A stretch of DNA of 62,762 nucleotides, taken from assembly GCA_021794475.1 (NCBI GenBank), contig JAJYQS010000012.1:1-62762 (forward strand), read 5' to 3'. Below are positions 6,763 through 60,960 of this stretch, in pieces. Numbering within the stretch: position 1 is the first letter of the stretch; each line of letters begins with the position of its first letter. Source of the stretch: a bacterium. GTDB taxonomy: Bacteria; SZUA-79; Acidulodesulfobacterales; Acidulodesulfobacteraceae. The translations under genes were made by a program, and so were the position numbers. The notes below the pieces were generated by a model. It was not told the origin of the DNA, ran no database searches, and saw nothing but the letters and a program-made list of their open reading frames with translations.

Positions 6763-7962
6763 ATGTTTAATTTAAAATTAAAGCAGAATAAATTTTTTAT
6801 CAAAGAGAAACTGTTATTGGCGGGCAGCTATGTATATAGTTATATAGCCGGCGCTATAAATTTTTTCTCGAAGAAAAGAAATTTTAAATTATCGGTGCTT
6901 AGCGCCTTAACTTTTAGCCTCTTGCTAATTATCGGCTTTCTTTCATATTCGGCTTATTTAATTTTTAATTTTGCCGGTAATCAAAAAAATTCAGTATATT
7001 CGCTAAAGCAGTCGTCCGTTATATATTATAATAGCGGCGGTAAGTTCATCGGCGGATTTCATCCTTATATTTCAGGCGGTTTTCAGCATAACGTTTTTTT
7101 TACTTTTATTATGATTGCAGCTGGATTGTCTTTTATCATAATATCTTTAATGTTTTTATATTTTTACAAATTAATAATCAGACATGACGATTTGGAACTG
7201 AGTTTAAGTTCTATTGAAAAAAATGCGCTTGAAGTGCCGGCTCTTATTTTCCATGAAATTAAAAATAGCGTAAATGCGTTATCTATTAATTCTAAATTAT
7301 TAAATTATAAACTAAACAGTTTAGAACTTAATACAGGCAAACATATTGAAAACAATAATAGTGCAGCCGATAATTTTAAAAACAGCTTTAAAGAAAGTTC
7401 GGAAACGAAGTCTGCATTCATCAAAATTGGAAGTATGATTGAATCTGAAACCGATAAAATAAATTTAACGATGGATAATATAATAAAATTCTCTAAATCT
7501 TTTAAACCGGATTTTGACCATGATGTATCTTTAGATTCTCTAATTCTTGAATGCATTAGCGATATTGATTTAAATTATCTTAATGATATTGTCAAGATTA
7601 ACTTAAATATTGATAAGCATATTACTGTAAAGATGGACAGATATCTTATGAAGCAGGTTTTTTTGAATTTAATATTAAACGCGATTCATTCTTATAATGG
7701 TAAGCGGGGTTCCGTGAATATATATACATCATATTATTTTTCTAAAGCAATTATTACAATAGAAGATAATGGCGTAGGAATCAGTAAAAATAATTTAAAA
7801 AAAGTCTTTGAACCTTTTTTTACTACAAAAGGAGACGGTATAGGCTTAGGGCTCGCATTTGTCAAGAAAGTTCTTGATTCGCATGGATTTACCGTCAATA
7901 TTGATAGCGAACAGGGCAAGGGAACCAAAGTGTCTATTGTTTTAGGCTGCGTTATTAATTAA
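6763..7962 (+). CDS. Membrane-bound sensor histidine kinase
   Basis: This 399-residue sensor kinase has two transmembrane helices (about 44-70 and 110-137) flanking a short extracytoplasmic loop of some 40 residues. The dimerisation/phosphoacceptor motif FHEIKNSVNAL puts the phosphorylated His at 164. A HATPase_c domain follows with an N-box (LNLILNAIHSY), DNGVGI and the glycine-rich GDGIGLGLAF. The small sensory loop suggests membrane or direct sensing rather than binding of a large ligand. The next gene, 60 bp away on the same strand, is an NtrC-type response regulator and its probable partner. The stimulus is unknown. Confidence 0.9.
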   Translation: MFNLKLKQNKFFIKEKLLLAGSYVYSYIAGAINFFSKKRNFKLSVLSALTFSLLLIIGFLSYSAYLIFNFAGNQKNSVYSLKQSSVIYYNSGGKFIGGFHPYISGGFQHNVFFTFIMIAAGLSFIIISLMFLYFYKLIIRHDDLELSLSSIEKNALEVPALIFHEIKNSVNALSINSKLLNYKLNSLELNTGKHIENNNSAADNFKNSFKESSETKSAFIKIGSMIESETDKINLTMDNIIKFSKSFKPDFDHDVSLDSLILECISDIDLNYLNDIVKINLNIDKHITVKMDRYLMKQVFLNLILNAIHSYNGKRGSVNIYTSYYFSKAIITIEDNGVGISKNNLKKVFEPFFTTKGDGIGLGLAFVKKVLDSHGFTVNIDSEQGKGTKVSIVLGCVIN

Positions 7963-59260: not shown

Positions 59261-60310
59261 ATGGATAGTTATACCGACAATAAAAAAAATGAATTTTATA
59301 TTCAGTGGCATTTTATAGACAGCTGCAATTTAAGGTGTATTCATTGCTATCAGAATGACTATTTGTTTAAAGAACCCGACTTAAATAAATTAAGTCTTAT
59401 TTTTCACAAACTTGATGATGCTTTGGCAAAATGGAAAATGGGCGGTTTTGTTTCACTGACAGGAGGGGAACCCTTTCTGAGTCCTTCCTCTTTATTTTAT
59501 GTGGCTGAATTAATAGAAAATTCGCCAAATTTTCAAAATGTTGCCATATTATCAAACGGTACATTAATAGACGAAAATATTATTAAAGAAATTAAAAGAT
59601 TTAAAAAAATTACCGAGATTCAAATATCTATAGATGGACCTGATGCTCAAATACATGAATCCATAAGGGGAAAAGGTACTTTTTTGAAAACTGTTGAAAC
59701 TGTTAGAAAATTAGTTAGCGCAGGATTGAAAACTTCTATTATGTTTACGGTGCATAAAAAAAATATGGACTATGCCGAGGATATGCTGTATTTGGCTAAG
59801 GAACTTAAAGTAAATTCCTTAACCATTGAAAGAATGACAACAATGAATGAAAAAGAAAAAAACGAATTTTTTATCAATCCTTATGATTTGGAAAGAGTTT
59901 ATAAAAACTTGTATGAAAAATCTAAAGTAGTGTTTGCAGAATCTGTGACAAAACTTATAACTTCCAGACCGTTATGGAATCTGGTAGATGAAAGTGCAGG
60001 CGGGTTTTGCCCGGTAGGACTTTCTTCAGTCTGCATTCTTCATGACGGTACCGTGCTCCCATGTAGAAGGCTCTATTTGCCGCTGGGAAATATTATTGAA
60101 GAAGGTCTCTTTAAAATATGGTATGGTTCAAAAATTTTATGGGATATTAGAAATAAGAAAAATCCGCCGGATAATAGCGGGGTTCATCCGCAATCTGCAT
60201 GTTCGGATATTAATTGTTCCCATTTTAAAAGATGCGGAGGATGCAAAGCGGTGAGCTATTATTATCACGGCAATATACACGAAAAAGATCCTCAATGCTG
60301 GCTTAACTGA
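59261..60310 (+). CDS. Radical SAM/SPASM peptide-modifying enzyme
   Basis: A 349-residue radical SAM enzyme. The cluster motif is CNLRCIHC (Cys22, 26, 29), with TGGEPFLSP at 67-75. The C-terminal SPASM domain has Cys258, GTVLPC (Cys268), Cys314, Cys319, Cys325, Cys328 and Cys346, enough to hold two auxiliary Fe-S clusters; Cys250 lies just before them. SPASM enzymes near a PqqD-like protein and a small peptide modify that peptide. Here the PqqD-like gene starts 57 bp downstream and a 34-codon peptide gene follows. Candidate reactions are tyramine excision (splicease), thioether formation or Tyr cross-linking. No strong ribosome binding site was found upstream. Confidence 0.9.
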   Translation: MDSYTDNKKNEFYIQWHFIDSCNLRCIHCYQNDYLFKEPDLNKLSLIFHKLDDALAKWKMGGFVSLTGGEPFLSPSSLFYVAELIENSPNFQNVAILSNGTLIDENIIKEIKRFKKITEIQISIDGPDAQIHESIRGKGTFLKTVETVRKLVSAGLKTSIMFTVHKKNMDYAEDMLYLAKELKVNSLTIERMTTMNEKEKNEFFINPYDLERVYKNLYEKSKVVFAESVTKLITSRPLWNLVDESAGGFCPVGLSSVCILHDGTVLPCRRLYLPLGNIIEEGLFKIWYGSKILWDIRNKKNPPDNSGVHPQSACSDINCSHFKRCGGCKAVSYYYHGNIHEKDPQCWLN

Positions 60311-60366
60311 TTTTATAAAAAAATACAGTTAGTCGGTACAATTAATTAAGGGATGGTTCGCTGATT

Positions 60367-60633
60367 ATGAATGTTATTAAATATAAACTTTTGCCGCAGT
60401 ATATTTTGCATGATGACGGCACGGAAAAATATATGCTTTTTGATACTAATACAGGCGACATATATAAATTGAATGCCGTGTCATATAATATCTTATCCTT
60501 TTGCAGCGGTGAATACACAAGCGATGAAATAAAAAATGAAATCTTAAAAATGTTTGATGTTCCTTTAGATATTTTAAGCAAAGATTTTAATGATATTATT
60601 ACAAAATTTCTAAATGAAAATATAATTTCTTAA
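60367..60633 (+). CDS. PqqD-like RiPP recognition element protein
   Basis: An 88-residue stand-alone PqqD-fold protein. The pattern MLFDTNTGDIYKLNAVSYNIL (beta-hairpin then helix, cut to its core) and a C-terminal amphipathic stretch with FLNENIIS match the winged-helix RiPP recognition element (RRE). Such proteins bind the leader of a precursor peptide and present it to the modifying enzyme, as PqqD does for PqqE. It sits between the radical SAM gene and the peptide gene. Confidence 0.85.
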   Translation: MNVIKYKLLPQYILHDDGTEKYMLFDTNTGDIYKLNAVSYNILSFCSGEYTSDEIKNEILKMFDVPLDILSKDFNDIITKFLNENIIS

Positions 60634-60743
60634 AATTCTTAAAATAAAATAAAAATATTTTTTAATAATCGCTAAAATTATTTTTAATTTTTCTTAAATT
60701 TTTCTAAAAATAACGTCAGTTAAAATTAAGGAGGTGAAAAAAC

Positions 60744-60848
60744 ATGAAGACCAATTACGAAAAGCCGCTGTTGGAGCAGTTGGATGCCGAAGAGTTTTAT
60801 TTAACTTTAATGGACAACTATGGAGTTAACGATTCGTGCTATTCTTGA
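60744..60848 (+). CDS. 34-residue putative RiPP precursor peptide
   Basis: The frame opens with ATG at 60744, preceded by AAGGAGGTG (60728-60736), the best Shine-Dalgarno sequence in this part of the window. The peptide starts MKTNYEKPLLEQL. Y5-P8-L10 fit the YxxPxL motif that RRE domains bind in lasso-peptide and related leaders. The C-terminal half is acidic with Tyr19, Tyr26, Tyr33 and a single Cys32; it contains N25-Y26-G27 followed by VNDSC. There is no GG or obvious protease site, no signal peptide and no similarity to a housekeeping protein. It is too short for standard gene callers. Role inferred from context. Confidence 0.78.
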   Translation: MKTNYEKPLLEQLDAEEFYLTLMDNYGVNDSCYS

Positions 60849-60887
60849 AAATCCTGCAAGTGAAATGTGCAGTTGGCACATAAGAAT

Positions 60888-60960
60888 TAAGCGTCTTATT
60901 CTTGAAATATTATAAAAAATATAAAAAGAAAAAGGCGCTTATTTTATTTATCTTATTTTT
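60888..60960 (+). terminator. Intrinsic terminator after the peptide gene
   Basis: TAAGCGTCTTATTCTT (60888-60903) pairs with AAGAAAAAGGCGCTTA (60926-60941), 16 positions with one wobble and one A-A mismatch, around a 22-nt loop. A long T-rich tract follows. It closes the radical SAM cassette. Confidence 0.8.

What the first reader, a model, noticed from the sequence alone, without database searches (positions are those of the whole stretch)
59261..60941. Compact radical SAM/SPASM + PqqD-like + short peptide cassette: a candidate undescribed RiPP system
Seen: a radical SAM enzyme with an N-terminal CxxxCxxC and seven to eight C-terminal SPASM cysteines, an 88-residue PqqD-like protein, a 34-codon gene with a near-perfect ribosome binding site, and a terminator. 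All are on one strand within 1.7 kb, with unrelated genes on both sides. Known: SPASM enzyme plus RRE plus small precursor is the core of PQQ, mycofactocin, sactipeptide and splicease systems. Inference: this is a peptide-modifying system in a lineage where none is assigned to it. The cassette carries no visible protease or exporter.
Basis: partly seen in the sequence, partly recalled or inferred. Interest (0 to 1): 0.88.

Follow-up and report, generated by a model that had tools for sequence, protein, structure and literature searches.

The report
Selenocysteine peptide with radical-SAM maturase cassette
What looked like a 34-residue peptide gene next to a radical enzyme is really a 39-residue gene whose 'stop' codon is very probably read as the rare amino acid selenocysteine, making it a candidate new selenium-containing natural peptide, conserved across a whole bacterial phylum and apparently not yet described.

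Summary
The cassette is real: a radical SAM/SPASM enzyme (59261-60310), a PqqD-like protein (60367-60633) and a small gene with a perfect Shine-Dalgarno. The ORF does not end at codon 34. Its TGA (60846-60848) is very probably selenocysteine, giving MKTNYEKPLLEQLDAEEFYLTLMDNYGVNDSCYS-U-KSCK (60744-60860).

Evidence: 23 distinct homologues keep TGA at this codon, while their true stop varies and every neighbouring codon changes at its third position. Nine homologues have Cys there. All 23 carry a covarying SECIS-type hairpin 18-25 nt downstream, which most Cys versions have lost. The genome encodes SelB, tRNA-Sec(UCA) and a UGA-containing SelD.

The peptide occurs in 27 of 30 genomes of the phylum, the enzyme in 23; usually the order is enzyme-PqqD-peptide. 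Roseburia and Actinomycetota have cassettes of the same order with Cys tails. No NCBIfam model covers the peptide, and the enzyme falls far below every curated cut-off.

Closest known: SbtA/SbtM selenobacteriocins (thio(seleno)oxazole RiPPs), with a different motif, a longer maturase and no separate PqqD. Best reading: a second, distinct family of selenocysteine-containing radical-SAM RiPPs. The modification and function are inferred. Five genomes keep the peptide without the enzyme.

The parts
59261..60310 (+). Radical SAM/SPASM enzyme, 349 aa; CxxxCxxC (C22/C26/C29) and 7-Cys SPASM domain; proposed maturase
   Evidence: Pfam PF04055 85.2 bits and PF13186 33.4 bits; best NCBIfam TIGR04340 118.6 bits vs cut-off 400; orthologues in 23 of 30 genomes of the phylum; model nearest SkfB/SuiB/CteB/anSME
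60367..60633 (+). PqqD-like (RRE) protein, 88 aa; proposed leader-binding chaperone
   Evidence: Pfam PF05402 33.8 bits, cut-off 23.4; orthologue next to the enzyme or the peptide in 21 genomes
60728..60736 (+). Shine-Dalgarno AAGGAGGTG of the peptide gene
   Evidence: sequence; conserved upstream of almost all homologous peptides
60744..60863 (+). Selenopeptide precursor gene, 39 codons + TGA stop: MKTNYEKPLLEQLDAEEFYLTLMDNYGVNDSCYSUKSCK; YxxPxL leader motif, CxxUxxC C-terminal core
   Evidence: in-frame TGA conserved in 23 distinct homologues, Cys in 9; profile hit in 27 of 30 genomes
60846..60848 (+). UGA codon read as selenocysteine (residue 35)
   Evidence: 23/23 distinct TGA sequences, never TAA/TAG; Cys codons in paralogues
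60865..60881 (+). SECIS-type hairpin AUGUGC-AGUUG-GCACAU, apical loop starting 22 nt after the UGA
   Evidence: covariation: 4 of 6 pairs with double changes, 93% paired, 0/500 shuffles; present in all 23 Sec forms, lost or altered in most Cys forms; fold -7.1 kcal/mol

Best explanation
The locus encodes a selenocysteine-containing RiPP-type system. SelB, tRNA-Sec and a SECIS hairpin just downstream decode UGA 35 of a 39-residue precursor as Sec, giving a C-terminal core ...D-S-C-Y-S-U-K-S-C-K with a C-x2-U-x2-C array. The PqqD-like protein is the recognition element; it probably binds the YxxPxL leader as RREs do in lasso-peptide and PQQ systems, and hands the precursor to the radical SAM/SPASM enzyme. 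The enzyme's two auxiliary Fe-S clusters most likely ligate a Cys or Sec of the core while the 5'-deoxyadenosyl radical abstracts hydrogen from a nearby residue, installing a thio- or selenoether (or oxazole-like) modification. Supported by sequence: Sec decoding, the covarying SECIS, conservation of the peptide, gene linkage and enzyme class. Inferred: that this enzyme modifies this peptide, which residues are modified, whether the leader is removed, and the final role (most likely a redox or metal-handling selenopeptide that stays in the cell, since no exporter or protease is linked).
For: UGA = Sec: TGA in 23/23 distinct homologues while the terminal stop varies (10 TGA, 9 TAA, 4 TAG); codons 36-39 keep Lys-(Ser/Glu)-Cys-Lys with third-position changes. 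Nine homologues have TGC/TGT at the Sec codon. A sister pair differs Sec/Cys with nearly identical downstream DNA (L115 and L057:6618). SECIS hairpin with loop AGNU and covariation, absent or altered in most Cys forms. Own genome: SelB 315.7 bits, tRNA-Sec 69.5 bits with anticodon UCA, SelD with in-frame TGA as AHGUGCK. System: order enzyme-PqqD-peptide in most genomes; in G026 PqqD+peptide stay together after the enzyme has moved (L108); same order in Roseburia L035, Actinomycetota L036/L149 and a second cassette in G001 (L062), each with a leader-like N-terminus and CxxCxxC tail. Enzyme model nearest the peptide/protein maturases SkfB, SuiB, CteB and anSME.
Against: No product or protein data exist. 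Five genomes keep an intact peptide without the enzyme: G007 and G008 with Sec, G004, G021 and G022 with Cys; G007 is 97% complete in 7 contigs. In G001, G006, G009 and G028 the peptide gene lies apart from the enzyme. No linked protease or exporter. Short hairpins in AU-rich DNA fold only weakly better than shuffles in single sequences (z -0.8 for the window), so the SECIS claim rests on covariation and position. Co-occurrence alone is not decisive (22 both, 1 enzyme only at a contig end, 5 peptide only, 2 neither).
Confidence: 0.75

Rival explanations
1. The TGA is a true stop: a 34-aa peptide ending in DSCYS, with the downstream hairpin acting as a transcriptional or regulatory element. The cassette is then a non-selenium RiPP.
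For: TGA is a stop in table 11; single-sequence folding of the hairpin is not significant in the window.
Against: Codons 36-39 evolve as coding sequence; Cys replaces TGA in nine homologues; TGA never becomes TAA/TAG in 23 sequences; the hairpin covaries, sits at the SECIS distance and is not followed by a T-run; the genome decodes UGA as Sec in SelD.
Confidence: 0.04
2. The peptide is a selenocysteine redox or metal-binding peptide that works unmodified; the radical SAM/PqqD pair modifies it only in some species or acts on another substrate.
For: Five genomes keep the peptide without the enzyme, and the peptide gene is sometimes apart from it. CxxU/UxxC motifs are typical redox motifs in selenoproteins (PMC13188914). 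Some Cys peptides lie next to a secreted DsrE-like protein (PF02635) and a secreted protein of unknown family, and one locus lies next to a MerA-like gene.
Against: Usual order enzyme-PqqD-peptide; leader-like N-terminus; same architecture with Cys peptides in two other phyla; enzyme nearest RiPP maturases. Enzyme remnants in G008 suggest recent loss there.
Confidence: 0.17
3. It is an outlying member of the known SbtA/SbtM thio(seleno)oxazole family and makes the same oxazole.
For: SbtM (TIGR04082) is among the top NCBIfam hits (109.9 bits), and SbtA also carries Sec with a SECIS element (PMC11002830).
Against: 109.9 vs cut-off 350, below ACGX and AhbD; profile match begins at position 198 of 516, so the N-terminal third is missing; no SbtA hit to the peptide or in the phylum; SbtA motif is SGUG with two Sec (PMC13188914), here SUK with one.
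Confidence: 0.06

Closest known systems
SbtA/SbtM selenobacteriocin (thio(seleno)oxazole RiPP; TIGR04081/TIGR04082; Lewis et al. 2021, reviewed in PMC11002830)
   Same: Radical SAM/SPASM maturase with a small precursor that carries an in-frame UGA followed by a SECIS element.
   Different: Precursor core is SGUG with two Sec there, SCYSUKxCK with one Sec here; the SbtM model is 516 positions with an N-terminal region missing here; here PqqD is a separate gene; enzyme score far below cut-off (109.9 vs 350).
ACGX system radical SAM/SPASM (TIGR04340)
   Same: Best NCBIfam hit of the enzyme (118.6 bits), full-length alignment.
   Different: Cut-off is 400; the ACGX-like Clostridia locus L039 has a long ACG-repeat peptide and no CxxU motif, and its enzyme is 25% identical.
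SynChlorMet (ScmE/F/D), GeoRSP and lasso-peptide PqqD/RRE proteins
   Same: Separate PqqD-family protein beside a SPASM enzyme, as in SynChlorMet and GeoRSP; the YxxPxL leader resembles lasso leaders (from memory).
   Different: All scores far below cut-offs; no lasso cyclase or protease genes seen.
Sactipeptide/ranthipeptide maturases (SkfB, CteB, PapB)
   Same: Fold, 7-Cys SPASM and Cys-rich substrate peptides.
   Different: Sequence identity about 20%; here the Cys/Sec array is at the extreme C-terminus and includes Sec.

Membership tests
Bacterial selenoprotein (Sec by UGA) | In-frame UGA conserved, with Cys in homologues | tested here: met
   23 distinct TGA, 9 Cys forms
Bacterial selenoprotein (Sec by UGA) | SECIS hairpin a short distance downstream, conserved by covariation | tested here: met
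   loop 18-25 nt after UGA; 4/6 pairs doubly changed, 0/500 shuffles
Bacterial selenoprotein (Sec by UGA) | SelB, tRNA-Sec and SelD in the genome | tested here: met
   SelA not searched
Bacterial selenoprotein (Sec by UGA) | Selenium actually in the product | not testable with these tools
   needs 75Se or mass spectrometry
Radical-SAM RiPP cassette | SPASM enzyme with SAM-cluster and auxiliary-cluster cysteines | tested here: met
   invariant cysteines, Pfam hits
Radical-SAM RiPP cassette | RRE/PqqD protein | tested here: met
   PF05402 above cut-off
Radical-SAM RiPP cassette | Conserved, linked precursor peptide with leader and core | tested here: met
   27/30 genomes; linked in most, unlinked in G001, G006, G009, G028
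Radical-SAM RiPP cassette | Enzymatic modification of the peptide | not testable with these tools
   no experiment; five genomes have peptide without enzyme
SbtA/SbtM thio(seleno)oxazole | Maturase over TIGR04082 cut-off (350 bits) | tested here: not met
   109.9 bits, N-terminal 197 positions unmatched
SbtA/SbtM thio(seleno)oxazole | SbtA-type precursor (TIGR04081, SGUG, two Sec) | tested here: not met
   no hit; motif per PMC13188914
ACGX system | Enzyme over TIGR04340 cut-off (400) and ACGX-repeat peptide | tested here: not met
   118.6 bits; no repeats
PQQ / mycofactocin / GeoRSP / SynChlorMet | Enzyme and PqqD over the equivalog cut-offs | tested here: not met
   mycofactocin, GeoRSP and SynChlorMet models far below cut-offs, PQQ_PqqD 15.7 vs 46 bits

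The most novel reading that the evidence does not exclude
A phylum-wide family of selenocysteine RiPPs in which the radical SAM enzyme uses the Sec of a CxxUxxC core itself (as auxiliary-cluster ligand and/or crosslink donor) to make a selenoether-type peptide with a conserved intracellular redox or metal role. This would be a natural selenium crosslink chemistry distinct from thio(seleno)oxazole, with a Cys-based sister system in other phyla.
Probability: 0.35. Interest if true: 0.9.

Novelty: new variant of a known kind. Interest (0 to 1): 0.78.

Why it matters
Only one selenocysteine-containing RiPP family (SbtA) appears in the 2026 inventory of 119 prokaryotic selenoprotein families (PMC13188914). 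A second family, with a different precursor and a split RRE, would show that radical-SAM enzymes have met genetically encoded selenium more than once. Natural Sec/Cys pairs inside one peptide family (same leader, Sec or Cys at one position, SECIS present or decaying) give a ready experiment on why selenium is used and what the enzyme does with it. It also shows that annotation truncates such peptides at UGA and hides the core: here the last five residues, with Sec and the third Cys position, were lost.

Tried and rejected
(1) Membership of a curated enzyme family: 74 NCBIfam models hit at E <= 1, the best 25 all far below cut-off. (2) SbtA/SbtM in the phylum: none, but the control genomes rang nowhere, so that negative is weak. 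(3) Loss of linkage as refutation: peptides not next to the enzyme were found elsewhere in the genome, mostly between the same housekeeping neighbours. (4) 385-aa rSAM hits in G007 and others are AhbC/AhbD-like heme enzymes by length and pairing (inference), rejected as substitutes. (5) Rfam: no SECIS or terminator family in the region. (6) Plasmid and IMG/VR searches gave no close relative. (7) Literature search found no description of this peptide; the SbtM primary paper is not held, so only a review was read. (8) A + strand terminator was not supported.

Full report
Observation. The 349-aa enzyme has Pfam Radical_SAM (85.2 bits) and SPASM (33.4), and the 88-aa protein is PqqD-family (33.8 bits, cut-off 23.4). 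Alignment of 21 homologues shows invariant C22/C26/C29 and C250, C268, C314, C319, C325, C328, C346, that is, a 7-Cys SPASM domain. Flanking genes are Pal, BioC/BioF-like, GatD-like and a glyoxalase-family protein.

The peptide does not end at codon 34. Relatives showed two kinds of gene: 34-aa ORFs ending ...DSCYS, and 39-aa ORFs ending ...SCYSCKGCK. Reading TGA as Sec turns the former into ...DSCYSUK(S/E)CK, collinear with the latter. Across the loci there are 23 distinct TGA forms and 9 Cys forms. TGA is invariant in all 23, while the terminal stop is 10 TGA, 9 TAA and 4 TAG. All four codons after it vary at the third position yet encode Lys-(Ser/Glu)-Cys-Lys, apart from one Arg-Ala-Cys-Phe form. 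The one length change there is a whole Lys codon, which keeps the frame.

SECIS. Every TGA form has a hairpin with a five-base loop AGNUN starting 18-25 nt after the UGA. In 15 distinct hairpins 93% of cells pair, four of six pairs show double changes, and no shuffle of 500 reaches the covariation score; slid controls collapse. E. coli fdhF has a similar loop (AGGUCU) at a similar distance (from memory). Of the nine Cys forms only one keeps an intact AGUUU hairpin (L057:6618); its Sec sister is L115 with nearly the same downstream DNA. One has a changed loop (GGUCG); the rest lack it. Single-sequence folding of the window's hairpin is unremarkable, so the argument is comparative.

Decoding machinery. 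The genome has SelB (G000:C74:12551-14470, 315.7 bits, cut-off 242.25), tRNA-Sec with anticodon UCA and SelD with in-frame TGA as SAHGUGCK. UGA is therefore very probably read as Sec in this organism. SelA was not searched for.

Distribution. The 30 genomes held for this order are also all those held for the phylum. The enzyme orthologue is in 23, the peptide in 27. Most have enzyme-PqqD-peptide in that order. In G001, G006, G009 and G028 the peptide stands alone between its usual housekeeping neighbours while the enzyme is on another contig; in G026 PqqD and peptide travel together. G011 and G024 carry three or more paralogous peptides. Five genomes have the peptide but no enzyme, with remnants in G008.

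Relatives outside. Roseburia (L035, 43% identity), Actinomycetota (L036, L149) and a second cassette in G001 (L062) keep the order enzyme-PqqD-peptide with a leader-like N-terminus and a Cys-only C-terminal array (CxxCxxCxC or CxxCxxCxxC). The Roseburia enzyme is sister to the phylum's clade (97/98). Such enzymes are rare: one other of 391 genomes in the Clostridia sample and one other of 397 in the Actinomycetota sample at E <= 1e-75. The Sec form was seen only in this phylum.

Mechanism. The AlphaFold model (pLDDT 75, pTM 0.80) is nearest SkfB, SuiB, CteB and anSME, enzymes that act on peptides or proteins. With a linked PqqD and a leader-like N-terminus (invariant Y5, P8, A15-E-E-F18 in the first 18 aligned peptides), the simplest mechanism is RRE-guided radical modification of the CxxUxxC core. 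Which bond is made is not known. The conserved cysteines and Sec fit a thio/selenoether or cluster-ligand role; the lack of SGUG argues against the SbtM oxazole. No exporter or protease is conserved nearby, which suggests an intracellular product. These steps are inference.

Known systems. SbtA/SbtM is the only Sec RiPP in the review literature read (PMC11002830; PMC13188914 lists it as selenobacteriocin, TIGR04081, SGUG, two Sec). This system fails both SbtM and SbtA tests. No entry of the 119-family table matches the peptide, and NCBIfam (June 2026) has no model for it. I therefore call it a new variant of a known kind, not a member of SbtA/SbtM.

Caveats. There are no experimental data; most genomes are draft assemblies; the literature held is open access only; co-occurrence alone is not decisive. 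My estimate is about 0.95 for Sec decoding and about 0.75 for modification of this peptide by this enzyme.

Noticed in passing
L049:1830-2040 and L056 (about 7700-7925): Short FmdB-like zinc-ribbon protein with a C-terminal in-frame UGA (EAIACGKT-G/D-GGFG-U-GT) followed by an AGGUU hairpin: another probable selenoprotein with the same SECIS loop. FmdB selenoproteins are known with UxxU (PMC13188914), but this C-terminal placement may be new.
   Followed up: partly
L057:4878-5348, L103:3217-3696, L106:331-801, L053:9026-9502: A secreted DsrE-like protein next to Cys forms of the peptide (also L051 and L056 next to the enzyme); a possible functional partner.
   Followed up: partly
L057:5947-6582, L053:8149-8778, L115:2840-3430: Secreted protein of about 200 aa without Pfam hit beside a second peptide paralogue (NSCHTCRACF / DSCYVURACF).
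   Followed up: partly
L056 (G026:C88): Degraded copy of PqqD and peptide (frame breaks, but CHSUKQ still readable) behind an intact radical SAM gene, downstream of a MerA-like gene; an intact PqqD+peptide lies elsewhere (L108).
   Followed up: partly
G007:C5:33449-33565 and G008:C22:192-308: Intact Sec peptide with SECIS kept although enzyme and PqqD are not beside it and no orthologue of the enzyme was found (enzyme remnants at contig ends in G008): the peptide seems to be under selection without the maturase.
   Followed up: partly
L062:9000-10440 (G001:C33), L147, L149: Sister cassette with peptide tail CRQCSSCH[AG]CR in this phylum and Actinomycetota; in L062 a cyclase-like gene seems to follow the peptide.
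   Followed up: partly
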